Assembly: GCF_001425235.1 (NCBI RefSeq)
Contig: NZ_LMEA01000007.1
Span: 73,170-137,169 of the forward strand
Direction of reading: 5' to 3'
DNA from: Devosia sp. Root413D1
GTDB taxonomy: Bacteria; Pseudomonadota; Alphaproteobacteria; Rhizobiales; Devosiaceae
Length of the DNA stretch: 64,000 nucleotides
Part shown: piece by piece, positions 15,572 through 31,794 of the stretch
Numbering within the stretch: position 1 is the stretch's first letter
How the letters are laid out: every line of letters begins with the position of its first letter
The notes under the pieces: model-generated
The model's input: only the letters and a program-made list of their open reading frames with translations
Database searches by the model: none
Told to the model about the DNA's origin: nothing
Position numbers and translations under genes: made by a program

Positions 15572-17242
15572 TCAGCCAAGGATGCCGGGGAGGTCGAGCC
15601 CCTTCTCGCGTGCGACATCGAGGGCGATTTCGTAACCGGCATCGGCGTGCCGCATCACGCCGGTCGCCGGATCGTTCCACAGTACGCGTTCCAGCCGGCG
15701 GGCCGCATCGTCGGTGCCGTCGGCACAGATCACCATGCCGGCATGCTGTGAAAAACCCATGCCGACGCCGCCGCCATGGTGGAGCGAGACCCAGGTTGCG
15801 CCCGACGCGGTGTTGAGCAGCGCGTTCAGCAGCGGCCAGTCCGAAACCGCGTCGGAGCCATCCTGCATCGCCTCGGTCTCGCGGTTCGGCGAGGCCACGG
15901 AACCCGAATCGAGGTGGTCGCGGCCGATGACCACGGGCGCCTTCAGTTCGCCGCTGCGGACCATCTCGTTGAAGGCGAGGCCCAGCCGGTGGCGGTCGCC
16001 GAGGCCGACCCAGCAGATGCGCGCCGGCAGCCCCTGGAACGCGATGCGCTCCCGCGCCATGTCGAGCCAGTTGTGGAGATGCGTGTTGCCCGGCGTCAGC
16101 TCGCGCACCTTGGCGTCGGTCTTGTAGATGTCTTCGGGGTCGCCCGAGAGCGCCGCCCAGCGGAACGGGCCGATGCCGCGGCAGAACAGCGGGCGGATAT
16201 AGGCCGGCACGAAGCCCGGGAAGGCGAAGGCATTCTCAAGTCCTTCGTCCTTGGCGACCTGGCGGATATTGTTGCCATAGTCGAGTGTCGGGATGCCGCG
16301 ATCCCAGAAGGCCAGCATGGCCTCGACATGTTCGCGCATCGAGGCGCGCGCCGCTTTTTCGACCGTCTTCGGGGCGCTCTCGCGCTTCTCCCGCCATTCG
16401 GCCATGCTCCAGGCCTTGGGCAGGTAGCCGTTGATCGGGTCATGCGCCGACGTCTGGTCGGTGACGAGGTCGGGGCGAATGCCGCGGCGCACCATCTCCG
16501 GCAGGATTTCGGCGGCGTTCCCGAGCAGGCCCACCGACTTCGCCTCGCCGGCTCTGGTCCAGCGCGCGATCATCTCGAGTGCCTCGTCCAGCGTTGTCGC
16601 CTTCTCGTCGAGGTAGCGGGTGCGGAGGCGGAAATCGATCGAGTCCGGGTTGCACTCGACGGCGAGGCAGGAGGCGCCGGCCATGACGGCGGCGAGGGGC
16701 TGGGCTCCGCCCATCCCGCCAAGGCCTGCGGTGAGGATCCACTTACCCTTGAGGTTGCCGCCATAGTGCTGGCGGCCGGCTTCGACGAACGTCTCGTAGG
16801 TGCCCTGCACGATGCCCTGGGTGCCGATATAGATCCACGAGCCCGCCGTCATCTGGCCGTACATGGCCAGGCCCTTCTTATCGAGCTCGTTGAAATGGTC
16901 CCAGGTCGCCCAGTGCGGCACGAGGTTAGAGTTGGCGATCAGCACGCGCGGTGCATCCGAGTGGGTGCGGAACACCCCGACCGGCTTGCCCGACTGGACC
17001 AGCAGGGTCTGGTCGGCCTCGAGCTTTTCCAGCGCCGCGACGATGCGGTCGAAATCCTGCCAGGTGCGGGCCGCCCGCCCGATCCCGCCATAGACCACCA
17101 GTTCGTTGGGGTTCTCGGCGACATCCGGGTCGAGGTTGTTCATCAGCATGCGGAGCGGCGCCTCGGTGAGCCAGCTCTTGGCGCGCAACTGGGTGCCGCG
17201 AGGGGCACGGACTTCTCGGATGTTGTGGCGGGGATCGGTCAT
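15572..17242 (-). CDS. hutU: Urocanate hydratase
   Basis: 556 residues, the usual length. It converts urocanate to 4-imidazolone-5-propionate using tightly bound NAD+, the second step of histidine degradation. Recognisable segments are [50 protein letters not shown] (the NAD-binding glycine-rich loop) and [20 protein letters not shown]. The start codon overlaps the hutG stop by 4 bases (ATGA), and hutD follows after 7 bases. Confidence 0.97.
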
Positions 17243-18048
17243 GGCTGTGCTTCCGCGAGAGAGGGGGCAAGCGCCTCGAGGCGCTTCAGCATTTCAGTGA
17301 GGTGGGCGCGCAGGCGTTCCGACTTGACGGGGTCGAGTGCGAAGGGCGGCGCTTCCGCGACGAGGTGCGTCGCCTGCGCCAGTTCGAGCTGGATCGTCTC
17401 TACGCCGCCGGCCGGGTTGCTGTAGTGGCGTGTCGTCCACCCGCCCTTGAAGCGGCCATTGAGCACCGAGCTGTAGCCCTCGGCCGCCCGCGCGACGTCG
17501 TAGACGGCGGCCTCGACGGCGGGCGCACAGGATCTTCCATCGGCCGTGCCGACATTGAAATCCGGCAGCGTGCCTTCAAACAGGAACGGGATATTCGAGC
17601 GGATCGAATGGCAATCGAAGAGAATGGCGACGCCGTGCGCCGCGCGGACCCGCTCGACTTCGGCGGCCAGCGCGGCGTGGTAAGGGGCGTGGTACACCGC
17701 CAGCCGCTGCTGCGTCTCGGCCGTATCGGCGAAGCCGCCCTCGGACCAGATCGGTGCGCCATCGAAATCGGTTTCGGGCACAAGCCCCGTGGTGTTCTGG
17801 CCCGGATAGAGGCTGGCGCCGGTGGGATCGCGACCCACGTCGATGACATAGCGGTGGTGGGTGGCGCGGATGGTCGAGGCGCCCGGCAGCAGGTCGCGAT
17901 AGAGTTGGTGGATATGCCAGTCGGTGTCGGCGAGGATTTTGCCGTTGTCGTTCAGCTGATCCCGGATCTGAGGCGGCACATAAGTCCCGGTATGCGGGAA
18001 CGCCAGGATGACGGGCGAGGTGCCCTGGTGGAGCTCGAAGATCTCCAT
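17239..18048 (-). CDS. hutG: N-formylglutamate deformylase
   Basis: 269 residues from ATG 18048, sharing one base with the hutH stop (TGATG). The product hydrolyses N-formylglutamate to glutamate and formate, the end of the five-step hut pathway. FGH-family landmarks are [39 protein letters not shown] and [13 protein letters not shown]. Its presence together with hutF shows that the deiminase/deformylase branch is used rather than direct formimidoylglutamase cleavage. Confidence 0.95.
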
Positions 18049-19583
18049 CAGTGCGCCAGCCCCGGCAGGATGCCAGGCCCGATGGCGCTGATCAGGCCAC
18101 CATTGGCGACCAGCGTCACCGCGGCGGCGATGTCGGGGGCCATGTAGCGGTCCTCCTCGAGTTCGGGAACCACCGCGCGAAGCGCCGAGCGGGCCTTGAG
18201 CAGTTCGGTGCCGGTCTGCAGCGGCGCCCGGCAATCGACACCCTGTGTCGCCGTGAGCGCCTCGATGCCGATAATGCCGAACAGGTTCTCGGTCATCTGC
18301 AGCAACCGGCGCGCCCCGTGGCAGGCCATCGAGACATGGTCTTCCTGGTTGGCCGAGGTGGGGGTGGAGTCGACCGAGGCCGGATGGGCCATCTGCTTGT
18401 TCTCGCTCATCAGCGCCGCCGAGGTCACCTCGGCAATCATCAGGCCGGAATTGAGCCCGGGCTTCTTGGCGAGGAATGCCGGCAAGCCGTAGGAGAGGGC
18501 CGGATCGACCAGCAAGGCGATGCGGCGTTGCGCAATGGCACCGATCTCGCACACCGCGATGGCGATCTGATCGGCCGCGAAGGCCACCGGCTCGGCGTGG
18601 AAATTGCCGCCCGACACTACGCTGCCATCGGACAGCACCAGGGGGTTGTCGGTGACGGCGTTGGCCTCGATCTCGAGCGTCCGCCCAGCCGTGCGGAGCA
18701 GGTCGAGGCAGGCGCCATCGACCTGCGGCTGGCAGCGAATGCAGTAGGGGTCCTGCACCCGTTCGTCGCCTTCAACATGGCTCTCGCGAATGGCCGAGCC
18801 GGCGAGCAGCGTGCGCAGCGCCGCTGCCGCATCGATCTGGCCCTGGTGTCCCCGGAGAGTATGGATATCGGGATGGAACGGGGCCGAGGAACCCATCGCG
18901 GCATCGGTCGACATGGCGCCGGTGATCAATGCTGCCTGGGCGGCGCGATGCGCGCGGAACAGTCCGGCAAGTGCCAGCGCCGTCGAGGTCTGCGTGCCGT
19001 TGATTAGCGCCAGGCCCTCCTTGGCGGCGAGCACCACCGGGCTGAGCCCGGCGCGTTCGAGCGCCGCGCGGCCAGTAAGCCGGTCGCCCCGGTAGAATGC
19101 CTCACCCTCGCCGATCATCACCGCCGTCATATGCGCCAGCGGCGCCAGGTCGCCGGAGGCGCCGACCGAGCCCTTTTCCGGGATCAGCGGGATGACGCCG
19201 CGGGCCAGCATGGCCTCGATCAGCCGGATGAGCTCGATCCGCACGCCGGATGCGCCGCGCCCCAGTGAGACCAGCTTCAGCGACATGATCAGCCGCACGA
19301 TGTTCTCTGGCAGCGGCGCGCCGACGCCGCAGCAGTGCGACAGGATGAGGTTGCGCTGCAGCGTGGCGAGGTCAGCTGCTTCGATCTTGATCGAAGCCAG
19401 TTTGCCGAAGCCGGTATTGACGCCATAGACCGGGGCGTTGCCGGCGGCGATCTGGGCAATGCGGTCCGCGGCGCGGTCGACCGCCGCGTCGAATCCCGGA
19501 TCGAGCACCGCGGGAGTGCCGTTCCAGAAGATCTCGGACAGCGTCTCGAGCGAGACGCTCCCCGGTGTGAGCGTGATAGTCAT
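18048..19583 (-). CDS. hutH: Histidine ammonia-lyase
   Basis: 511 residues from ATG 19583, chosen because it overlaps the hutI stop (ATGA) and gives the usual HutH N-terminus [10 protein letters not shown]. The Ala-Ser-Gly triad that forms the MIO electrophile is at residues 142-144 ([14 protein letters not shown]). [12 protein letters not shown] and GNFHAEP are further family motifs. It deaminates L-histidine to urocanate, which is also the normal inducer ligand of HutC. All catalytic landmarks look intact. Confidence 0.97.
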
Positions 19584-20809
19584 GTTGCCTTGCCCTTGAA
19601 GATGCGGCGGTGCAGCGGGTTGAAGCCGATGCGGTAGGTGAGTTCGGCCACCGAGGCGCAGTTCCACACCGCGAAGTCAGCGGATTTGCCCGCCTCGAGC
19701 GTGCCGGTCTGCTCGCGCAGCCCCAGCGCCTGCGCCGCTATGCGCGTCGTTCCGGCCAGGCACTCGGTGACCGTCAGCCCGAACAGCGTGGCCGCCATGT
19801 TCATGCCCAGCAGCAGCGAGGTGAGCGGCGAGGTACCGGGGTTGCAATCGGTGGCGACAGCGATCGCGACGCCATGCCGGCGCAGCGCGGCGATATCGGG
19901 CTTGTGCGTCTCTCGGATGGCGTAGAAAGCGCCCGGCAGCAGCACCGCGACCGTCCCCGCGGCGGCCATGGCCGCGGCGTCCGCGTCGTCGATATATTCG
20001 AGATGATCCGCCGACAGCGCGCCGTAACGGGTGGCGAGCAACGTGCCGCCGAGATGGCTCAACTGCTCAGCATGGAGCTTCACCGGCAGCCCGAGCTCCC
20101 GCGCCAGGTCGAAAACCCGGGCGATCTCCTCGGGCGAAAAGGCGATGCCCTCGCAAAAGCCGTCGACAGCGTCGACCAGCCCGTCGGCATGCGCCGCTTT
20201 CAGGCCGGGCAGCACCACCTCGTCGAGATAGGCTCCGTTGCGTCCCTTGTACTCCTCGGGCGTCGCATGGGCGCCCAGATACGAGGTGACCAAGCGCACC
20301 GCCCGCCGATTGCCCAGCTCGCGGGCGGCGCGCAGCATGTTCGACTCGGCCTCGATACTGAGGCCATAGCCTGACTTGATCTCGATGGTCCCCACACCCT
20401 CGCCGAGCAGCGTATCGAGGCGCGGCAGGGCCTGCTCGACCAGTTCCTCGACCGACAGCGCTCGGGTGGCCCGAACGGTCGAGACGATACCGCCCCCAGC
20501 CTTGGCAATCTCGACATAGCTGGCGCCGTCGAGCCGCATTTCGAACTCACGGGCGCGGTTGCCGCCATGCACGATGTGGGTGTGGCAATCGATCAGCGCC
20601 GGGGTCACCAGCCGGCCGCCGAGGTCGATCTGTTGCGCGCCGTCGATATCGGGCGCTTCCGACGCGGCGCCGGCGAAGACGATGCGTTCGCCGGAGGTGA
20701 CGACCACGCCGTTCTCGATCGGCTCGACCGAGGGGCTGGCCATCGTCACGAGGCGGGCGTTCCGCCATAGTTTCACGTCGGCGTCGCGGCTGGGGATTGG
20801 TGTCGGCAT
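19580..20809 (-). CDS. hutI: Imidazolonepropionase
   Basis: 409 residues, first gene of the leftward hut unit. It is an amidohydrolase-fold enzyme that opens the ring of 4-imidazolone-5-propionate to N-formimidoyl-glutamate. Metal and substrate motifs are [39 protein letters not shown] and [12 protein letters not shown] HutC-type box lies 30 bases upstream of its start, in the 92-base gap shared with the divergent hutF. Confidence 0.97.
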
Positions 20810-20838: not shown

Positions 20839-20850
20839 ATGTATAGACAT
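20839..20850. promoter_or_regulatory. HutC-type operator in the hutI/hutF divergent promoter
   Basis: ATGTATAGACAT, an imperfect ATGT-N4-ACAT dyad. The identical 12 bases recur at 23075-23086 and 23977-23988. It is the only such box between the two hut transcription units, so one site probably serves both directions. Assignment to HutC rests on position and recurrence. Confidence 0.8.
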
Positions 20851-22296: not shown

Positions 22297-23043
22297 ATGA
22301 GCGTGAGCACACTAGTGACTGCCGAGCGTGACACCGAAGCCGGCACGCTCCACCAGCGCATCCTCAATGACATTGAAGGCAAGATCGTTTCGGGGGAATG
22401 GCCCATCGGCCACCGCATCCCGTTCGAGGTGGATCTCGCTCGCGAGTATGGCTGCTCGCGGATGACCGTGAACAAGGTCCTGACCCAGCTGGCGCGGGCC
22501 GGGCTGATCGAGCGGGTGAAAAAGAGCGGCAGCTTCGTCAGCCAGCCGCACACCCAGTCCGCGGTGCTCGAGATCAGCGACATCCGCAAGGAAGTGGAGT
22601 CGCTCAAGCTCCCCTACGCCTTCAATGTTCCGCGGGCGGGGAAGCGGAAAGCCCAGGGCGCCGATCGGCTGTTGCTCGACGTGCCCGTCGGTACGGCGAT
22701 CCTCGATATCACCTGCGTCCACCTGGCGGGCGGCAAGCCGTTCTGCCTTGAACAGCGGCTGATCAACCTTGCCAGTGTCGAGGGCGCCGACCAGGCGGAT
22801 TTCACCAAGGTCCCGCCCGGACAATGGCTGCTGAGCCAGGTGCCGTGGAGCTCGGCGGAACACCGCATCCATGCGGCAGCGGCGGACGCCACGACCGCTG
22901 AACAACTGGGGATCGAGCAGGGCACGGCTTGCCTCGTGATCGAGCGCCGGACTTGGAGCGCCGGCGCTGCCGTCACTCAGGTGCGGCTGACCTATCCGGG
23001 CGATCGCCACGCCCTCGTCGCCACCTTTACCCCGTCGTCGTGA
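22297..23043 (+). CDS. hutC: Histidine utilisation repressor, GntR/HutC family
   Basis: 248 residues. The N-terminal GntR winged HTH (about residues 17-82) includes GEWPIGHRIPFEVDLAREYG and SRMTVNKVLTQLARAGLIER. A C-terminal UTRA ligand domain follows (about 95-245, with FCLEQRLINL and CLVIERRTW). HutC proteins repress hut genes and release DNA on binding urocanate. Its position between hutF and an SDR/ABC transporter operon, and the identical ATGTATAGACAT boxes in front of both systems, suggest that it controls both. Confidence 0.93.
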   Translation: MSVSTLVTAERDTEAGTLHQRILNDIEGKIVSGEWPIGHRIPFEVDLAREYGCSRMTVNKVLTQLARAGLIERVKKSGSFVSQPHTQSAVLEISDIRKEVESLKLPYAFNVPRAGKRKAQGADRLLLDVPVGTAILDITCVHLAGGKPFCLEQRLINLASVEGADQADFTKVPPGQWLLSQVPWSSAEHRIHAAAADATTAEQLGIEQGTACLVIERRTWSAGAAVTQVRLTYPGDRHALVATFTPSS

Positions 23044-23074: not shown

Positions 23075-23086
23075 ATGTATAGACAT
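23075..23086. promoter_or_regulatory. HutC-type operator upstream of the SDR gene
   Basis: ATGTATAGACAT, an exact copy of the hut promoter box, 52 bases before the SDR start codon. No other regulator gene lies nearby. Confidence 0.78.
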
Positions 23087-23138: not shown

Positions 23139-23909
23139 ATGTCTAGCAAATCTGCCTTCGACCTCACGGGAAGGCGCGCCCTGGTGACCGGCGGCAGCCG
23201 CGGCCTGGGGCAGGGGATTGCCGTTGCCCTCGCGGCAGCTGGCGCCGAGGTCTGCGTCACGGCGCGCGCCCGCGCCAGCCTCGACGCGACGCTGAGCCAG
23301 GTCGCAGCAGCCGGTGCGTCCGGCCGGGCGCTCGAGCTCGATGTCACCGATGTCGCCGGCATCGCCGCCGCAATCGGTGAACTCGACGCGGCGTGGCCCA
23401 TCGACATCCTCGTCAACAATGCCGGCTTCGAAAGCGTCGCGCCGTCGCTCGATGTCGATGAAGCGCTGTGGGACAGCATCGTCGACACCAACCTCAAGGG
23501 TAGCTTCTTCTGCGCCCAGGCGGCGGCGCGCGGCATGGCCTCGCGCGGTCGCGGTGGCTCGATCATCAACCTCTGTTCGCTGACCTCCTATGTGGGCGTG
23601 CCCACCGCCGTCCCCTATGGTTCGTCGAAATCCGGGTTGCTCGGCATGACCCGCGCCCTGTCGGCGGAGTGGGCTCGGCACGGCATCCGCGTCAACGCGG
23701 TCGCGCCGGGCTATTTCCGCACCGAGATGACGGAAGGTTTCTATGCCGAAGAAGCCTGGGCCACCGGCATGCTGGGAAAGATCCCGCAGGGCCGCTTCGG
23801 GCTGGCCGAGGATGTCGGCGGCCCTGTCGTCTTCCTCGCCAGCACCGCATCGGCCTATGTGACGGGGCAGTGCCTGGCGATCGACGGAGGCTACCTTGCC
23901 TCCATCTGA
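23139..23909 (+). CDS. SDR family NAD(P)-dependent oxidoreductase
   Basis: 256 residues, ATG preceded by GGGAGGAGG. A classical short-chain dehydrogenase with cofactor loop TGGSRGLG (17-24), NNAG (93-96) and catalytic Ser147, Tyr160 and Lys164 (YGSSK). It oxidises or reduces a hydroxy or keto group of a small molecule. It lies directly downstream of a HutC-type box and upstream of an ABC importer with its own box, in a cluster that also holds a HisD-family dehydrogenase and a zinc alcohol dehydrogenase. It is probably one step of the same pathway. The substrate is unknown. Confidence 0.9.
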   Translation: MSSKSAFDLTGRRALVTGGSRGLGQGIAVALAAAGAEVCVTARARASLDATLSQVAAAGASGRALELDVTDVAGIAAAIGELDAAWPIDILVNNAGFESVAPSLDVDEALWDSIVDTNLKGSFFCAQAAARGMASRGRGGSIINLCSLTSYVGVPTAVPYGSSKSGLLGMTRALSAEWARHGIRVNAVAPGYFRTEMTEGFYAEEAWATGMLGKIPQGRFGLAEDVGGPVVFLASTASAYVTGQCLAIDGGYLASI

Positions 23910-23918
23910 CGCGCCATT

Positions 23919-23953
23919 TGCACAATCTTTGTGCAGAAAGGAAAACTGCACAA
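23919..23953. promoter_or_regulatory. NtrC-like palindrome plus an extra half-site
   Basis: TGCACAA-tct-TTGTGCA (23919-23935) is a perfect 17-bp dyad of TGCAC-N7-GTGCA form, the shape of enteric NtrC sites. A third TGCACAA follows at 23947-23953. It precedes the ABC transporter promoter by about 80-110 bases. Nitrogen control is inferred. The dyad could alternatively be a weak hairpin at the end of the SDR transcript. Confidence 0.5.
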
Positions 23954-23976
23954 GTCGTGTTGACACACAGGTCGAT

Positions 23977-23988
23977 ATGTATAGACAT
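23977..23988. promoter_or_regulatory. HutC-type operator upstream of the ABC transporter operon
   Basis: A third exact copy of ATGTATAGACAT. It lies about 12 bases after a TTGACA (23960-23965) that could be the -35 element, so a bound repressor would cover the -10 region. It is 44 bases before the start of the ATPase gene. Confidence 0.78.
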
Positions 23989-24032
23989 TATTGGCATGAG
24001 GTGGCTGCGACTGGCCTGTTCGAGGGGAAGTT

Positions 24033-25166
<1,134 letters not shown>

Positions 25167-25199
25167 GCCGGCTGGTAGAGACAATAGGAGAGAGAAACC

Positions 25200-26306
25200 A
25201 TGACTGATCACAAATCCATCCTTGCCCTGTCCCGCCGCAAATTCCTCGGCGGCGCCGCCGCGCTGAGCGGCATCGCAGCCTCCGGCTTCGCGACACGGGT
25301 ATTTGCCCAGGAACCGGCCAAGCCCGCCGAAATCATCGTGCGGGCCTGGGGTGGCTCGTGGGTCGATAGCCTCAAGGCGGGCGTTTCCGACCCCTTCACC
25401 GCTGCCACCGGCATCGCCGTCCGGCACGACCTGACCGAAGACAACGAGATCCAGCCCAAGGTGTGGGCGGCGGTGGCGCAGAACCGGGTGCCCCCGATCC
25501 ACATCAACTGGGACACCACCACCAATGCCACCAAGTCTGCACTGCGTGGCGTGACCGAGGATCTGTCCGATCTCTCGAACCTCGCCGGCACCACGGACCT
25601 CGCCAAGCCTGTCGGGCTCGAGGGCTATCCGATCGTCAACACCTACGGCTATGTCTACGTGCTGGCCTACCGTCCCGAGGCCTTCCCGGATGGCGCCCCG
25701 ACCTCGCTGCAGGTGCTGCTCGATCCCAAGTTCAAGGGCCGCATCGCGCTCTACAACGACGGTATCGGCTTCCACTTCCCTGCCCAGGTCGCCGGCGGCG
25801 GCAAGCTCGAGGATATCCCCGCCAACATGCAGCCGGCCTGGGATTTCATCGCCAAGGTCAAGCAGCAGGCGCCGCTGCTCGGCGAGGACCCGGATTTCAC
25901 CACCTGGTTCCAGAATGGCGAGATCGACCTCGCGGTGACTATCTCGACCAATGCCCGCGAAGCCAAAAAGAACGGCGTCAACATCGCCTGGACCGTTCCC
26001 GAGGAAGGCGCCAAGTTCGATACCGATGGTCTGTGGATCCCCAAGGGCCTGCCCGAGAACGAGCTCTACTGGGCCAAGCAGTACATCAACTTCGCCATCA
26101 CCAAGGACGCTCAGCAGGTGTGGCTCGATGGCCTCGGACTGCCGGGCGTCGTCCCCGGTCTCACTCCGCCGGCCGATCTCGTCGGCGATCCGTCCTACCC
26201 GACCAAGCCGGAGGATTTCGAGCACCTGATCCGCATCTCCTCGCAGGTCCAGGTCGAGAACGAGAGCACCTGGTTCGGCGAATTCAAGAAGATCATGCAG
26301 GGCTGA
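25200..26306 (+). CDS. ABC transporter substrate-binding protein, PotD-like, Tat-exported
   Basis: 368 residues. The N-terminus carries a twin-arginine motif (SRRKFLGG, residues 11-18) and a hydrophobic stretch ending RVFAQEP, so export is probably by Tat. The mature protein starts with EIIVRAWGGSWVDSLKAGVS, the beginning typical of PotD/PotF-type solute-binding proteins for polyamines and other small amines or acids. It delivers the unknown substrate to the two permeases encoded next. The ligand cannot be inferred from residues alone. Confidence 0.9.
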   Translation: MTDHKSILALSRRKFLGGAAALSGIAASGFATRVFAQEPAKPAEIIVRAWGGSWVDSLKAGVSDPFTAATGIAVRHDLTEDNEIQPKVWAAVAQNRVPPIHINWDTTTNATKSALRGVTEDLSDLSNLAGTTDLAKPVGLEGYPIVNTYGYVYVLAYRPEAFPDGAPTSLQVLLDPKFKGRIALYNDGIGFHFPAQVAGGGKLEDIPANMQPAWDFIAKVKQQAPLLGEDPDFTTWFQNGEIDLAVTISTNAREAKKNGVNIAWTVPEEGAKFDTDGLWIPKGLPENELYWAKQYINFAITKDAQQVWLDGLGLPGVVPGLTPPADLVGDPSYPTKPEDFEHLIRISSQVQVENESTWFGEFKKIMQG

Positions 26307-26367
26307 TCTCGCCTCGAACTCGGGACGGCGCTGCGGTGCCGTCCCGCACTACCCCCTGAGGAGCATC

Positions 26368-27312
26368 ATGCGAACGTATCGAAAGGCCTATCCGCTTGGC
26401 TGGCGGATCATGGACGGTATCGAGGCCGCCGTGGCCGCCGTCTGGCCGAGACGCCTGTCTGGTGCGGTGCCCTACGTGATGGTGCTGCCGGCGGTGCTGC
26501 TGGTGCTGCTCCTGGTGATCGGCATGGTGCAGATCGCCGACCAGAGCGCCCGCGTCCTCGACACCAGCACCTTTATGCCCTCGGCCGACTATCGCTCGGC
26601 CAACTATGAGCAGATTTTCAATAGCGGCCTCTACTGGTCGATCCTGTGGCGGAGCCTGCTCGGCTCGGTGATCGTCACCGTGCTCTGCCTCGTCTTCGCG
26701 TTTCCCTACAGCTACCTGATGGTGCGCACGCCCTCGGCCTTGCTGCGCAAGTTCCTGCTGATCGCGCTGTTCCTGCCCTTTTTCATCGGCCAGGTGGTGC
26801 GCGCCTATGGCTGGCTCATCATCCTCGGCAACCAGGGGGTGGTGAACGAGGTGCTGGGGCTGGTCGGCGTTCCCCCCATGCGGCTGCTCTACAACTACCC
26901 AGCCGTCCTCTTCGGGCTGGTGCAGTACATGATCCCGTTCGCCGTGCTGATGCTGGCGCCGGCCCTCACCGCCATCCCCGAGGAGATCGAGTCCGCTGCC
27001 AGCAGCCTCGGCGCCAACTGGTGGCGGAGCTTCGTCCACGTCGTGCTGCCGATGGCCAAGCCCGGCCTGATCGGCGCCGGCCTCGTGGTCCTGACGCTGT
27101 CGTTGACCGATTTCGCCATGCCGGCCATCCTTGGCGGCGGCTCGCAGGATTTCATCGCCAATGCCATCTACGACCAGTTCTTCCGCACCTCCGACCAGGG
27201 GATGGGCGCCGCGCTCACCATCATCCTCGTCGGCATCGGTTCGCTGGTCGTTGGCATCGTCTTTTCGATCTTCGGGGCCGGCACCCTCGCCATGGGGAGG
27301 GATCGCAAATGA
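26368..27312 (+). CDS. ABC transporter permease, PotB-like
   Basis: 314 residues with about six hydrophobic segments, the first at about residues 38-56 (YVMVLPAVLLVLLLVIGMV). The EAA loop reads EEIESAASSLGANWWRSFVH, followed by LPMAKPGL. It is the first membrane subunit of the PotABCD-like importer. Its stop overlaps the next start (ATGA at 27309-27312), so the two permeases are translationally coupled. Confidence 0.92.
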   Translation: MRTYRKAYPLGWRIMDGIEAAVAAVWPRRLSGAVPYVMVLPAVLLVLLLVIGMVQIADQSARVLDTSTFMPSADYRSANYEQIFNSGLYWSILWRSLLGSVIVTVLCLVFAFPYSYLMVRTPSALLRKFLLIALFLPFFIGQVVRAYGWLIILGNQGVVNEVLGLVGVPPMRLLYNYPAVLFGLVQYMIPFAVLMLAPALTAIPEEIESAASSLGANWWRSFVHVVLPMAKPGLIGAGLVVLTLSLTDFAMPAILGGGSQDFIANAIYDQFFRTSDQGMGAALTIILVGIGSLVVGIVFSIFGAGTLAMGRDRK

Positions 27313-28112
27313 CCCAGCAACCCCTGGGCAAGTCCATCGTCATCTGGACGATGGTGGCCCTGGTCCTCATCGTCCTCTCGGCCCCGACGATCGTGGTCCT
27401 CGGCGCCTCCTTCACCTCGGGCAACATCATCCAGTTCCCGCCGCAGGGGTTCTCGCTGCAGTGGTACGCCAAGATCGCGCTGGCCGATGACCTGCGCAGC
27501 GCTTTCGTCCGGTCGCTGGCCGTGGCGCTGATCTGCACCCTGATTTCCATCCCGGTCGGCACCCTCGCGGGCATCGCGCTCAGCAAGTATGCGATCAAGT
27601 TCGAGCGGACGCTGCAGATCTACTTGCTGCTGCCCTTCACCATCCCGCTGATCGGTTCCGGCATCGGGCTGATGCTGCTGTTCGGCGAGATGCGGATTCT
27701 CGGGCAGATCTGGCCGGTTGGCCTCGCCTGCTGCGTCATCAACCTGCCGTTCATGATCTGGGCGGTGATGGCGAGCTCGGCGAGCCTCGACCCCGACCTC
27801 GAACTGGCGGCGGCCAATTGCGGGGCAGGGCCGATCTCCACCTTCTTCAATGTGACCATCCCGGGCGTCATGCCCGGCATCATCAGCGGCTCGCTGCTAA
27901 TGTTCATCCTGGCGCTCAACGAGTTCCTGGTCAGCCTGCTCCTGACCGACGCCCGGACGGTGACGCTGCCGGTGCAGATCTACAATTCGATCCGCTCGAT
28001 CATCACCCCGGACCTCGCGGCCATCTCGGTGGTCTTCATCGTCTGCGCGACCCTGGTGATCGCGCTGCTCGACCGCCTGGTCGGCCTCGACATCTTCCTC
28101 AAATCGAAATGA
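27309..28112 (+). CDS. ABC transporter permease, PotC-like
   Basis: 267 residues from ATG 27309. A first transmembrane segment (VIWTMVALVLIVLSAPTIVV) is followed by five more. The EAA-like loop is DLELAAANCGAGPISTFFNV, then IPGVMPGIISG. It completes the importer. The HisD-family gene starts 34 bases downstream on the same strand with no terminator in between, tying transport to the enzymes. Confidence 0.92.
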   Translation: MTQQPLGKSIVIWTMVALVLIVLSAPTIVVLGASFTSGNIIQFPPQGFSLQWYAKIALADDLRSAFVRSLAVALICTLISIPVGTLAGIALSKYAIKFERTLQIYLLLPFTIPLIGSGIGLMLLFGEMRILGQIWPVGLACCVINLPFMIWAVMASSASLDPDLELAAANCGAGPISTFFNVTIPGVMPGIISGSLLMFILALNEFLVSLLLTDARTVTLPVQIYNSIRSIITPDLAAISVVFIVCATLVIALLDRLVGLDIFLKSK

Positions 28113-28146
28113 CGGTCCGCCGTCCGTACGCAAAGTGAGACGAACT

Positions 28147-29472
28147 ATGTCTGACGTGTCCTTCTACGACTACGCGAAGCTCTCGACCGAGCAGCGGGCA
28201 GCGCTGCTGAAGCGTTCCGAGGCCGATCTCTCCGGCGTCATCGAGAAGGTGAAGCCGATCATCGAGGCGGTGCGGACCGAAGGCGATGCCGCGCTTGCCC
28301 GGTTTGCGCGGGATCTCGACAAGGCTGAGAACGTCACCGAAGCGACGCTGCAGGTCACGCCGGCTGAGTTCGACGCCGCCTTCAAGGCGGTCGACAGCAA
28401 GGTTATCGACGCCATCCAGTTCGGCATCGAGAACATCCGCAGCTTCCACGAGGAGCAGAAGCCCGAGACCATGTGGATGAAGGAGATCCGGCCGGGCGCC
28501 TATGCCGGCGATCGCTTCACCCCCATTCAGTCGGTCGCCCTCTATGTGCCGCGCGGCAAGGGCTCGTTCCCGTCGGTGACCATGATGACCTCCGTGCCGG
28601 CCGTCGTCGCCGGTGTGCCCAATCTTGCCATCGTCACCCCGCCGGCGCCCGATGGCAGCGTCGACGCAGCAACCCTGGTGGCGGCGCGCCTCGCCGGCGT
28701 CGAGACGGTCTACAAGGCCGGCGGCGCCCAGGCGGTTGCCGCGATTGCTTATGGAACGAAGACGGTGAAGCCGGCGCTCAAGATTGTCGGCCCGGGCAGC
28801 CCCTGGGTGGTCGCCGCCAAGCGCCTGCTCTCCGGCGTCATCGATACGGGCCTGCCTGCTGGTCCCTCCGAGGCGGTGATCTTTGCCGACGACACCATCG
28901 ATGGCGGCCTCGCCGCGCTCGATCTGCTCATCGAAGCCGAGCACGGCCCGGATTCGTCGGCTTACCTCGTCACCCACAGCCGACGCGTTGCCGAGGAGGC
29001 GATCGCCGCGCTGCCGGGTATCTGGGCGAAAATGACCGAGCAGCGCGTCGCCTTCTCACGCACCGTGCTGACCGGCGGCAAGACCGGCGGCATCATCCTC
29101 ACCTCGTCGGTCGAGGAGAGCTACGACTTCATCAACGCCTATGCCCCCGAGCACCTCGAGATCCTCTCCACCGAGCCCTATGATCATCTGGGCAAGATCA
29201 CCGAGGCGTCGGAAATCCTGCTCGGCCAGCACACCCCCTGCAGTATCGGCAATTTCGGCCTCGGGCCCAATGCCGTGCTGCCGACCAGCCGCTGGGCCCG
29301 CACCTACGGTCCGCTCTCTGTTACCGATTTCGTCAAACGCAGCTCGATCGGTTACGTCACCGCCGCAGGTTTTCCGCTGCTCGCCAGGCACGCCCACGAG
29401 CTCGCCATCTACGAGGGTTTTTCGTCGCATGCCCTTGCCGTCTCGGACCTGCGCCAGCAGTTTGTGCGGTAG
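28147..29472 (+). CDS. HisD-family dehydrogenase with altered metal site (not the biosynthetic enzyme)
   Basis: 441 residues from ATG 28147. The histidinol-dehydrogenase fold is clear: YVPRGKGSFPS, AGGAQAVAAIAYGT, GPGSPWVVAAKR, LPAGPSEAV, YAPEHLEI (catalytic-pair equivalents E335 and H336) and GPLSVTDFVKRSS. Compared with E. coli HisD (zinc ligands Gln259, His262, Asp360, His419), the aligned positions here are Glu263, His266, Asn369 and His428, and the histidine of GPNHVLPT is Ala376. These changes argue against ordinary histidinol oxidation. Its place in an ABC transporter/SDR/ADH operon with HutC-type boxes points to a catabolic two-step alcohol-to-acid oxidation of an unknown compound. 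Confidence 0.9.
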   Translation: MSDVSFYDYAKLSTEQRAALLKRSEADLSGVIEKVKPIIEAVRTEGDAALARFARDLDKAENVTEATLQVTPAEFDAAFKAVDSKVIDAIQFGIENIRSFHEEQKPETMWMKEIRPGAYAGDRFTPIQSVALYVPRGKGSFPSVTMMTSVPAVVAGVPNLAIVTPPAPDGSVDAATLVAARLAGVETVYKAGGAQAVAAIAYGTKTVKPALKIVGPGSPWVVAAKRLLSGVIDTGLPAGPSEAVIFADDTIDGGLAALDLLIEAEHGPDSSAYLVTHSRRVAEEAIAALPGIWAKMTEQRVAFSRTVLTGGKTGGIILTSSVEESYDFINAYAPEHLEILSTEPYDHLGKITEASEILLGQHTPCSIGNFGLGPNAVLPTSRWARTYGPLSVTDFVKRSSIGYVTAAGFPLLARHAHELAIYEGFSSHALAVSDLRQQFVR

Positions 29473-29480
29473 CCGATCCT

Positions 29481-30491
29481 ATGCGTGCGGTGCGCCTCCA
29501 TGACGTCAAGGACCTGAGGTTCGAACAGGTCGCTGCCCCCGGGGCGCCTGGCCCCGGTTCGGTGCTCATCGCCGTCGAGGCCGCCGGCATCTGCGGCTCG
29601 GACCTCCACAACTTCTCGACCGGGCAGTGGATTTCGCGCCGCCCAAGCGTCGCCGGCCACGAGTTCTGCGGCCGGGTCGTCGCGGTCGGGCAGGGGGTGT
29701 CCGGCCTGTCGGTTGGGCAAGCCGTGGTGGCCGATTCCCGCTTCTGGTGCGGCGAGTGCCCGCAGTGCCGCGACGGCCATCGCAACGCCTGTGAACGCCT
29801 CGGCTTCGTCGGCGAGGTCTGCGATGGCGGCTTCGCCGAACAGGTCATCCTGCCGGCGAGGCTCGTGCAGCCGCGACCTGAGACCATGGACCCACGCGTC
29901 GCGGCAATGAGCGAGCCACTCGCCGTGGCCCTCCACGCCATCAACAAGGTCGCACCGGCCGACGGCGCTGGCGTGCTGGTGGTCGGCTGCGGCACCATTG
30001 GCGGCCTCTGTGCGCTCGCCCTCTCGCATCGCCATAACGGCCCGCTCCTCCTGGCGGATCGCAATGCCGATCGGGCGCGGATGGTCGCGAAGGTCACCGG
30101 CGGTCGGGTTGTCGATCTCACCCCGGACGCCATCGCCGCCGCCAACCAGGGCCGGCCGCTGCGCTTTGCCATCGATGCCACCGGCAGCATCGCCGCCTTG
30201 CGGCAATTGCTCGATGTCATCGGGCCGAACTCCGTGCTTGGCCTTGTCGGCATCAGCCACGGCAAGCTCGATCTCGACCCCAATCACCTGGTCGAGCGCG
30301 AGATCCAGCTCGTCGGCTGTCACGCCTTCAAGGACGAACTGCCCGAGGCAATCGCCCTGGCCGATGTGCTCGGCGAGCAACTGCTCTCCCTGATCGACGA
30401 GGAGATCGGGCTCGACCAGGTGCCGGCCGCCTTCGAGCGCTTGCTGGCCGGCAATGTCAAAGGCCTCAAGACCATCATCTCCATCCGCTAG
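29481..30491 (+). CDS. Zinc-dependent alcohol dehydrogenase (MDR family)
   Basis: 336 residues, 8 bases after the HisD-family gene. Catalytic zinc ligands are Cys38 (ICGSD), His60-Glu61 (GHE) and Glu145 (SEPLAVA). The structural zinc lobe is intact with cysteines 90, 93, 96 and 104 (CGECPQCRDGHRNAC). The NAD-binding segment is VLVVGCGTIGGL. It is a sorbitol/threonine dehydrogenase-like enzyme oxidising a secondary alcohol. Together with the SDR it could interconvert stereoisomers of a hydroxyl compound before the HisD-type enzyme acts. Confidence 0.92.
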   Translation: MRAVRLHDVKDLRFEQVAAPGAPGPGSVLIAVEAAGICGSDLHNFSTGQWISRRPSVAGHEFCGRVVAVGQGVSGLSVGQAVVADSRFWCGECPQCRDGHRNACERLGFVGEVCDGGFAEQVILPARLVQPRPETMDPRVAAMSEPLAVALHAINKVAPADGAGVLVVGCGTIGGLCALALSHRHNGPLLLADRNADRARMVAKVTGGRVVDLTPDAIAAANQGRPLRFAIDATGSIAALRQLLDVIGPNSVLGLVGISHGKLDLDPNHLVEREIQLVGCHAFKDELPEAIALADVLGEQLLSLIDEEIGLDQVPAAFERLLAGNVKGLKTIISIR

Positions 30492-30507
30492 CCCGGCAGA
30501 CCCGACC

Positions 30508-31794
30508 ATGACCCAGTTTTCCAGCCGGACGGCGGATATTCGCGCCGCCGCCAAGCACCATGACGGCCGGGCGGAACCGCTGCTCGCGGCGCTGCTCGCC
30601 GACCTATTCAAGATCGAAGCGCAGAACGTCGCGATCAATCGCGACCAGTACAGCCTCAACTCGCTCAACGGCTTCTTCGACACCGCCGACGGCGCCTTCT
30701 TTTTCAAGTTCCACCAGGAAGAGGGCGAAGAACAGATGAGCGGCGAGTATTATCGCGCCGACATCCTGGCGCGGGCCGGATTGCCGGTCGATCAGGCCGT
30801 CTACACCTCGACGCTCCCCGGCGAGCAGATCCTCGTCTACCGCCGTCGCACCGATCCGCGCTTCTCCGATGTCCTGCGGGCCCTCGATCTCGACGACCAT
30901 GCCGAGCGTCGCGCCGCGGCGGTCTCAGCCGAGGCGACGCTGAGCGATTGCGTCAACGACATCTACCGGCAGACCCTGCACCCGATCACGTCGGCGCAGT
31001 CGCAAAGCGAACCGGTGCACCGTCTGTTCTTCGAGCGCCTCATCGATCCGGTCACCGGCGCCTATCCCGGTGGGCGCCTCAAGAGCTTCTATGTCGGCCA
31101 GAGCTTCGCGTTTCCGGGCGCCACACTGAGCTGGGCCGAATTTGCCGGCGCCGAGTTTATCGTCAACGGCGTCGCCTACCGCCACTCGATCGGCGAGCTG
31201 TTCGACTTGGCGCACCACCGGCTGAACCCCATTCGCCTGGCGGATGCCGGCGGTGTCGTGGCGCATGGCGACGCACACAATGCCAACGTCTGGTATTCCG
31301 AGGGGCAGGACGGGCCCAGCCTGTCGTTCTTCGATCCGGCGTTTGCCGGCGAGCACGTGCCCTCGCTTCTCGCCGAGGTGAAGACGACCTTCCACAACAT
31401 CATCGCCCACCCGCTCTGGCTCTACGATCCCGAGGAAGTCGCGAAGTGCTACACCGCAACCGCAACCCATCGCGACGGCACCCTCGCCATCGAGACGGAC
31501 TGGGCCCTGACCCCGGTCCGCGAGGACCTGCTTCAAGTGAAGGCCGAACGCGCCTGGCGCCCGCTGTTGCAGGATTTGCGGGATCGCAACCTCCTGCCGG
31601 CAGACTGGCGCCAGCTTATCCGCCTGGGCCTGTTCCTCTGCCCCACACTGGTGATGAACCTTCGGGCCGGCAGCGGCCGCCACAACCCGATCTCCTCGGC
31701 CATCGGCTTCGCCAACGCAGTGCGCGTCGGCAGCGAACCGGACGACGGCACAGACTTCGTCACCGCGTTCCTCGATTCAATCGAGCCGCGTTAG
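30508..31794 (+). CDS. APH-fold (aminoglycoside phosphotransferase-like) kinase, unknown substrate
   Basis: 428 residues from ATG 30508, 16 bases after the dehydrogenase. The Brenner-type catalytic motif HGDAHNANV (253-261) and the metal-binding aspartate in FFDPAFAG (D276) define the APH/choline kinase fold. FFFKF near residue 67 may supply the nucleotide-binding lysine. It is longer than typical choline kinases. As the last gene of the HutC-box cluster it may phosphorylate the imported compound or an intermediate. A resistance role is unlikely in this setting. I do not recognise a specific subfamily. Confidence 0.75.
   Translation: MTQFSSRTADIRAAAKHHDGRAEPLLAALLADLFKIEAQNVAINRDQYSLNSLNGFFDTADGAFFFKFHQEEGEEQMSGEYYRADILARAGLPVDQAVYTSTLPGEQILVYRRRTDPRFSDVLRALDLDDHAERRAAAVSAEATLSDCVNDIYRQTLHPITSAQSQSEPVHRLFFERLIDPVTGAYPGGRLKSFYVGQSFAFPGATLSWAEFAGAEFIVNGVAYRHSIGELFDLAHHRLNPIRLADAGGVVAHGDAHNANVWYSEGQDGPSLSFFDPAFAGEHVPSLLAEVKTTFHNIIAHPLWLYDPEEVAKCYTATATHRDGTLAIETDWALTPVREDLLQVKAERAWRPLLQDLRDRNLLPADWRQLIRLGLFLCPTLVMNLRAGSGRHNPISSAIGFANAVRVGSEPDDGTDFVTAFLDSIEPR

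What the first reader, a model, noticed from the sequence alone, without database searches (positions are those of the whole stretch)
23139..31794. Candidate undescribed catabolic pathway built on a HisD-like enzyme with a changed active site
SDR, PotABCD-like importer, HisD-family dehydrogenase, zinc alcohol dehydrogenase and APH-fold kinase form a continuous rightward cluster. The HisD-type enzyme has Glu and Asn at two of the four zinc-ligand positions of E. coli HisD and Ala in place of the GPNH histidine, so histidinol is an unlikely substrate. SDR plus ADH plus HisD-like resembles the hpsOPN set for dihydroxypropanesulfonate, but as I recall HpsN keeps the standard metal ligands, and the control signals here point to nitrogen. 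A new amino-alcohol or imidazole-compound route is a reasonable hypothesis.
Basis: partly seen in the sequence, partly recalled or inferred. Interest (0 to 1): 0.8.

Follow-up and report, generated by a model that had tools for sequence, protein, structure and literature searches.

The report
HutC-controlled histidinol-like alcohol catabolism cluster
A soil bacterium (Devosia) carries, right beside its histidine-degradation genes and apparently under the same repressor, an importer plus oxidising enzymes that probably turn a histidinol-like imidazole alcohol into histidine for use as food; its key enzyme belongs to an unrecognised branch of histidinol dehydrogenases with a changed metal site.

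Summary
SDR, PotABCD-type importer, HisD-family enzyme, Zn-ADH and an APH-fold kinase form a rightward cluster directly after a complete hut locus (hutUGHI, hutF, hutC). E. coli HisD Q259, D360 and H367 are E, N and A in 89 of 89 aligned homologue rows; the catalytic Glu/His pair, two Zn-ligand histidines and the imidazole-contacting Glu are kept. Two things change the reading. (1) The 10-mer TGTATAGACA, which fits the HutC-subfamily operator consensus, occurs exactly three times in the 5.85-Mb genome: at hutI/hutF, SDR and potA. The cluster is probably part of the HutC regulon; many relatives add HutC paralogues, HisC-type or aromatic aminotransferases and a hydroxy-acid oxidase. (2) The altered site is not evidence against histidinol: ten tested genomes of one distant genus, and 12 of 17 genomes of one alphaproteobacterial family, have Glu/Asn-type HisD and no canonical HisD found, yet keep other histidine-biosynthesis genes where tested. 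Dihydroxypropanesulfonate is unlikely (HpsN's sulfonate contacts are Phe/Phe here). Best reading: uptake and oxidation of histidinol or its desamino diol to histidine, feeding Hut. Substrate unproven; kinase role open.

The parts
15572..17242 (-). hutU, urocanate hydratase
   Evidence: TIGR01228 967 bits, cut-off 375
17239..18048 (-). hutG, N-formylglutamate deformylase (start approximate)
   Evidence: TIGR02017 352 bits, cut-off 279
18048..19583 (-). hutH, histidine ammonia-lyase (start approximate)
   Evidence: TIGR01225 715 bits, cut-off 539
19580..20809 (-). hutI, imidazolonepropionase
   Evidence: TIGR01224 432 bits, cut-off 298
20840..20849 (+). putative HutC operator TGTATAGACA in the hutI/hutF divergent promoter
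   Evidence: one of 3 exact copies in window and in whole genome
20902..22248 (+). hutF, formimidoylglutamate deiminase
   Evidence: TIGR02022 589 bits, cut-off 413
22297..23043 (+). hutC, GntR/UTRA repressor
   Evidence: TIGR02018 290 bits, cut-off 220
23076..23085 (+). putative HutC operator in front of SDR
23139..23909 (+). SDR dehydrogenase, 42% identical to HpsO
   Evidence: present in 78 of 78 counted neighbourhoods
23919..23935 (+). NtrC-like palindrome TGCAC-N7-GTGCA
   Evidence: a site with at most 1 mismatch in 8 of 81 regions (window included) against 0.75 expected
23978..23987 (+). putative HutC operator in front of potA
24033..25166 (+). ABC transporter ATPase, PotA-like
   Evidence: TIGR01187 350 bits, just under its cut-off 356
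25200..26306 (+). periplasmic binding protein, PotD/PotF-like
   Evidence: SBP_bac_8; nearest solved relatives by sequence are agropine- and spermidine/putrescine-binding proteins, weak
26368..27312 (+). ABC permease, PotB-like
27309..28112 (+). ABC permease, PotC-like
   Evidence: start placed at the ATG at 27309
28147..29472 (+). HisD-family dehydrogenase of the Glu/Asn type (E263, N369, A376)
   Evidence: PF00815 450 bits; residues; clade 100/100
29481..30491 (+). zinc alcohol dehydrogenase (31% to HpsP)
30508..31794 (+). APH-fold small-molecule kinase, catalytic motif intact

Best explanation
The cluster is the upstream arm of histidine utilisation. An ABC importer brings in an imidazole compound with a three-carbon alcohol side chain: L-histidinol and/or its desamino analogue 3-(imidazol-4-yl)propane-1,2-diol. 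SDR and Zn-ADH interconvert the secondary alcohol and ketone at C2 (as HpsO and HpsP, named DHPS-2-oxidoreductases, do for DHPS); the HisD-family enzyme oxidises the primary alcohol to the carboxylate with 2 NAD+. Histidinol would give histidine directly; the diol would give imidazolelactate, which a hydroxy-acid oxidase (or SDR/ADH) turns to imidazolepyruvate and a HisC-type or aromatic aminotransferase to histidine. Histidine enters HutHUIFG; urocanate formed by HutH lifts HutC from the three shared operators, so the module is induced by its own product. Shown: gene order, residues, shared motif, conserved gene set, Glu/Asn-type HisD as the only HisD found elsewhere. Inferred: HutC binding, substrate, order of steps. 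Unassigned: the kinase.
For: TGTATAGACA occurs 3 times in the genome, all here, at hutI/hutF, SDR and potA (chance in window 0.02). It fits the published HutC-subfamily consensus GTMTAKAC (PMC4494728, passages) and is one base from the Pseudomonas TGTA-N2-TACA site (PMC12977541, passages). In 87 homologous loci: 105 exact sites in 69 loci; 102 of 105 lie near the start of SDR/HisC, PotA, HisD or hut genes, against a mean of 1.15 copies (max 11) for 60 anagram 10-mers. A HutC-family gene lies in 65 of 78 neighbourhoods. At least one hutH/I/U/F homologue lies within about 10 kb in 15 of 81 loci, in several arrangements (in L061 only a lone HutH homologue). Aminotransferases in 34 of 78 (27 HisC type, 7 aromatic type) and FMN hydroxy-acid oxidase in 26 of 78; a Klebsiella copy adds a glyoxylate/hydroxypyruvate reductase. 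The same signature marks the only HisD found in lineages that keep histidine biosynthesis genes. Positions of HpsN H126 and K353 are Phe and Phe in 89 of 89 rows, while E. coli Glu414 (Glu455 in Medicago HisD, where it contacts imidazole; PMC5585171 passages; residue match inferred) is kept.
Against: No substrate is shown. Glu414 is also kept in HpsN, so it does not prove imidazole. The window's genome has no close homologue of the cluster HisC (best 33%) or hydroxy-acid oxidase (best 43-45%), and the exact operator is not near either, so here those steps would rest on other enzymes. Histidinol alone would need only HisD. The kinase, in 46 of 78 neighbourhoods and associated with the oxidase (24 of 26 oxidase loci; p=2e-5 if loci were independent, which they are not), has no place in the scheme. 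18 of 87 loci lack the exact operator (two or three of them too short to hold the promoter); of 15 of these examined, 7 had only a 1- or 2-mismatch form and 8 none. Annotated Klebsiella and Pantoea copies have no hut operon in view; one has an N-formylglutamate amidohydrolase about 10 kb away.
Confidence: 0.6

Rival explanations
1. Phosphorylated salvage: SDR/ADH make imidazoleacetol, the kinase phosphorylates it, HisC (cluster or biosynthetic) converts imidazoleacetol phosphate to histidinol phosphate, a phosphatase gives histidinol, and the HisD-like enzyme, a true histidinol dehydrogenase, gives histidine for Hut.
For: Uses every enzyme except the hydroxy-acid oxidase; the S. meliloti HisC-type aminotransferase scores 647 bits against a cut-off of 540 for a histidinol-phosphate transaminase model; Glu/Asn-type HisD is the only HisD found in some genomes.
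Against: Kinase absent from 32 of 78 neighbourhoods, including 7 that have the aminotransferase; the hydroxy-acid oxidase, associated with the kinase, is unexplained; no phosphatase among the cluster genes.
Confidence: 0.15
2. Catabolism of a non-imidazole amino alcohol or diol, with a HutC relative recruited as regulator.
For: Importers are PotABCD- or SsuABC-type, both families with varied substrates; the S. meliloti cluster HutC paralogue is only 31% identical to the window's HutC; Klebsiella and Pantoea copies have no hut operon in the annotated stretch.
Against: In Devosia the canonical hutC and the hut operon itself share the site; hut linkage recurs in other families; HisC-type and HisD-type enzymes point to histidine chemistry.
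Confidence: 0.15
3. DHPS (dihydroxypropanesulfonate) catabolism, hpsOPN-like.
For: Same three enzyme classes; SDR 42% to HpsO, ADH 31% to HpsP, HisD 31% to HpsN.
Against: HpsN signature His126 and sulfonate-binding Lys353 are Phe and Phe in 89 of 89 rows; two HpsN zinc ligands (Gln248, Asp352) are Glu and Asn; shared hut-type site; the enzyme scores higher with true HisDs than with HpsN and branches away from HpsN. No sulfolactate lyase is annotated in the relatives' clusters, but it was not searched for.
Confidence: 0.03
4. The HisD-like gene is a spare biosynthetic histidinol dehydrogenase and the neighbours are unrelated.
For: Glu/Asn-type enzymes are the only HisDs found in some genomes; in genome G402 the only HisD sits in an SDR/kinase/SsuABC cluster.
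Against: The window's genome has a canonical HisD on contig C12; importer, SDR and ADH are conserved around the enzyme in dozens of genomes with a hut-type operator.
Confidence: 0.07

Closest known systems
hpsOPN module for 2,3-dihydroxypropanesulfonate (CpHpsN structure paper, PMC11382572)
   Same: SDR + Zn-ADH + HisD-family 4-electron dehydrogenase; catalytic Glu/His pair
   Different: Two of four metal ligands, the sulfonate-binding His and Lys, regulator type, transporter and downstream genes differ
Histidinol dehydrogenase HisD (E. coli, Medicago; PMC5585171)
   Same: Fold family, catalytic Glu326/His327, His262, His419, Glu414
   Different: Gln259->Glu, Asp360->Asn, His367->Ala, Gly133->Arg, Tyr361->Phe; forms a separate 100/100 clade
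Hut pathway and HutC regulon (reconstruction of 113 HutC regulons, PMC5343134)
   Same: Regulator family, operator type, physical linkage, nitrogen role
   Different: The HutC section (passages) names hut enzymes, transporters and, in two species, the histidine biosynthesis operon; the word histidinol does not occur in that paper's main text
Sinorhizobium meliloti pSymA hisC3-SMa0391-0396-hisD2
   Same: Orthologous cluster (81% HisD identity)
   Different: Adds HisC-type aminotransferase, HutC paralogue and hydroxy-acid oxidase; in the two papers seen it appears only in gene tables with homology names (passages)

Membership tests
Canonical HisD | PF00815 / TIGR00069 over cut-off | tested here: met
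   450 and 421 bits
Canonical HisD | Zn ligands Gln, His, Asp, His | tested here: not met
   Glu263, His266, Asn369, His428
Canonical HisD | Catalytic Glu326 and His327 | tested here: met
   Glu335, His336; 89 of 89 rows
Canonical HisD | Oxidises L-histidinol | not testable with these tools
   Indirect support only: same-type enzymes are the only HisDs found in some genomes
HpsN / hpsOPN | G-R-Y-A/S-H motif (His126) | tested here: not met
   Phe at the His126 position in 89 of 89 rows; G-K-G-S-F in the window
HpsN / hpsOPN | Lys353 sulfonate contact | tested here: not met
   Phe370; Phe in 89 of 89 rows
HpsN / hpsOPN | SDR and Zn-ADH partners | tested here: met
   42% to HpsO, 31% to HpsP
HutC regulon | Shared operator-like site with hut genes | tested here: met
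   3 of 3 genome copies at hutI/hutF, SDR, potA
HutC regulon | HutC binds and urocanate releases | not testable with these tools
   needs EMSA or reporter
PotABCD polyamine importer | PotA-type ATPase over the family cut-off | tested here: not met
   TIGR01187 349.6 bits against cut-off 355.6
PotABCD polyamine importer | Binding protein binds polyamine | not testable with these tools
   only weak sequence similarity, E 6e-7 to spermidine/putrescine-binding protein
APH-fold kinase | Fold and HGDxxxxN motif | tested here: met
   Foldseek probability 1.00 to methylthioribose kinase and APHs, TM 0.3-0.6; motif invariant in 34 of 34 rows; no Pfam hit

The most novel reading that the evidence does not exclude
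An undescribed, widespread catabolic pathway in which HutC controls import and oxidation of histidinol or imidazolylpropanediol to histidine, built on a second class of histidinol dehydrogenase whose metal site has swapped carboxylate and amide ligands (Gln/Asp to Glu/Asn) and which has replaced canonical HisD in histidine biosynthesis in some bacterial lineages.
Probability: 0.45. Interest if true: 0.72.

Novelty: new variant of a known kind. Interest (0 to 1): 0.62.

Why it matters
It would extend histidine utilisation upstream to imidazole alcohols in many rhizobia and their relatives, give a function to the S. meliloti hisC3-hisD2 cluster, show how a HisD can work with a rearranged metal site, and warn that automatic 'hisD' and 'histidinol-phosphate transaminase' labels can hide catabolic genes. 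It also suggests how genomes that lack textbook HisD may still make histidine.

Tried and rejected
DHPS pathway: rejected on HpsN signature residues. Dead enzyme: unlikely, because the catalytic pair and the signature are invariant down to 45% identity. 'Altered ligands exclude histidinol': rejected. A first search for palindromic TGTA..TACA forms in front of SDR found 1 of 82; the right motif was then read by eye and tested, so its discovery and first test use the same window; the other loci are the independent part, though many are close relatives. A widely conserved NtrC site: only 8 of 81 regions, window included. A sigma-54 site: 0 of 81. Clustering the remaining neighbour ORFs found no further cluster-wide family; the largest group covered 7 loci. 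Kinase profile against PDB sequences: nothing meaningful; PADLOC nothing. HisD structure model: unreliable in the metal loop, not used further. A. brasilense: a paper reports that mutants in its hisD region are less fit in defined medium (PMC5764234, passages); a plasmid copy from another A. brasilense strain has canonical residues, so this gives no evidence on the Glu/Asn type; I did not show that it is the same gene. Literature: the ten searches listed no paper on this pathway as far as titles and abstract openings show; only the top-listed papers were seen, served another question, and most subscription papers are not held.
Full report
What is there. The window lies in a Devosia-like genome: the nearest named copy of the HisD-like gene, 99% identical, is in D. 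insulae, and the window is G000:C7:73170-137169. Immediately before them stands a complete histidine-utilisation locus: hutU, hutG, hutH, hutI on the minus strand and hutF, hutC on the plus strand, each over a curated NCBIfam cut-off.

The HisD residues. In an alignment with E. coli HisD and C. pinatubonensis HpsN, the metal ligands Gln259 and Asp360 are Glu263 and Asn369, and His367 is Ala376. His262, His419, the catalytic Glu326/His327 and Glu414 are kept. 89 of 89 clade rows (the window, its own copy L001 and 87 loci, among them a Klebsiella plasmid at 63% and a Monoglobus record at 45% identity) carry the same letters; Arg133, Phe138 and Phe361 are further fixed differences. The swap Gln/Asp to Glu/Asn keeps one acid and one amide, so a metal site may well persist; that is inference. 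HpsN keeps all four ligands and recognises sulfonate with His126 and Lys353 (PMC11382572, passages read). Both positions are Phe here, which argues against DHPS.

Does the change exclude histidinol? The evidence says no. A scan of 398 genomes of the phylum found 20 with a close relative, including genomes of another alphaproteobacterial order and of a distant genus. In that genus (f48/g105) 10 of the 11 matching genomes were tested further: each has one HisD-family gene, always Glu/Asn/Ala, and all ten keep hisF. Five of the ten are 93-100% complete, the other five 76-88%, so absence of a second HisD is weaker for those. None has a Pfam IGPD match at 1e-10, but the two loci examined carry a divergent HAD-IGPD fusion beside a HisC-like gene. 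In family f11 (17 genomes) five have canonical HisD. Twelve have Glu/Asn enzymes and no canonical HisD was found; one of these also has an HpsN-like paralogue and another has partial matches that were not classified. Eleven of the twelve were tested for IGPD and all have it. In G402 the only HisD sits in a cluster of SDR, kinase and SsuABC importer, without ADH. In Monoglobus the enzyme is followed by an IGPD gene annotated 'hypothetical'; only that replicon was searched. The tree gives one clade (100/100) holding these sole HisDs and the cluster enzymes together (the tool flags long branches, and the root is at the midpoint). The simplest reading is that Glu/Asn-type enzymes are working histidinol dehydrogenases.

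Regulation. The 10-mer TGTATAGACA was first seen by eye in front of hutF, SDR and potA. It occurs three times in the window against 0.02 expected, and these are the only three in the 5.85-Mb genome. It matches the HutC-subfamily consensus GTMTAKAC (PMC4494728, passages) and is one base from the Pseudomonas HutC palindrome (PMC12977541, passages). In 87 homologous loci there are 105 exact copies in 69 loci. 102 of 105 lie near the start of SDR/HisC, PotA, HisD or hut genes, and 60 anagram 10-mers average 1.15 copies, the highest 11. Eighteen loci lack an exact copy; L009 and L010 and probably L085 are too short to hold the promoters. Of 15 of the eighteen examined, 7 had a 1- or 2-mismatch form, which may be chance, and 8 had none. 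A Paroceanicella copy has one exact site and a TGTATATACA site, and a Pantoea copy a TGTATATACA site before its importer. HutC binding itself is inferred. In S. meliloti the orthologous genes are down roughly 10-fold with ntrBC and glnK in a tolC mutant (PMC2912261, passages), and a perfect NtrC-like palindrome precedes potA in the window; both fit nitrogen control.

Conserved gene set. In 78 neighbourhoods with usable flanks: SDR 78, ADH 71, HutC-family regulator 65, Pot-type importer 52 or Ssu-type 23 (3 neither), kinase 46, aminotransferase 34 (27 HisC type, 7 aromatic type), FMN hydroxy-acid oxidase 26. Kinase and oxidase go together (24 of 26 oxidase loci; p=2e-5 treating loci as independent). 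Hut enzyme homologues are within reach in 15 of 81 loci, in several orientations; in L061 it is a lone HutH homologue. A Klebsiella copy adds a glyoxylate/hydroxypyruvate reductase near the oxidase, again pointing to a 2-hydroxy/2-oxo acid. These partners fit an alcohol oxidised to a 2-hydroxy acid, then to a 2-oxo acid, then transaminated to histidine. From memory, not from a call: Pseudomonas (Comamonas) testosteroni was reported in the 1970s to degrade imidazolyl-lactate through imidazolylpyruvate and histidine, which would be the second half of this route.

What is not settled. The substrate is unproven. In the window's own genome the nearest HisC-type (33%) and oxidase (43-45%) genes are unlinked and lack the exact operator, so a direct histidinol route or use of other enzymes must be assumed there. 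The kinase has an APH fold and intact motifs but its target is unknown; a phosphorylated salvage route is kept as a rival.

Novelty. Ten literature searches listed no paper that describes this module, judged by titles and abstract openings of the listed papers; the HutC-regulon reconstruction, of which I read passages, does not contain the word histidinol in its main text. I rate it a new variant of a known kind: a Hut upstream module plus a variant HisD class.

Noticed in passing
L123:3310-6349, L120:2492-5645 (genus f48/g105): HAD-IGPD fusion protein (apparently two IGPD domains in L123) with weak Pfam IGPD matches beside a HisC-like gene, in genomes with no ordinary IGPD hit: a divergent late histidine pathway accompanying the Glu/Asn/Ala HisD.
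   Followed up: partly
L090:10001-12931 (Monoglobus): Glu/Asn/Ala HisD followed by an IGPD gene annotated 'hypothetical protein' (105 bits) and a HAD hydrolase; looks like an unrecognised histidine biosynthesis group.
   Followed up: partly
L126 (G000:C8:548001-568000) and L125 (G000:C2:88001-106000): Three more HisD-family paralogues in the window's genome, related to HpsN (Lys at the 361 position, Leu at 138 instead of HpsN His), with SDR- and PotA-like genes nearby; substrates unknown.
   Followed up: no
L116, L195, L199 (family f11): A subtype with Asn instead of Ala at the 367 position (E/N/N), outside the cluster and probably the biosynthetic HisD of that genus.
   Followed up: partly
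window 23919-23935: Perfect NtrC-like palindrome in front of potA, conserved in few relatives.
   Followed up: partly
L089:19301-24682 (Klebsiella variicola plasmid): Amino acid permease, glutamine synthetase, RpiR regulator, N-formylglutamate amidohydrolase and isochorismatase genes about 3-9 kb beyond the cluster; possibly another nitrogen-compound pathway.
   Followed up: no
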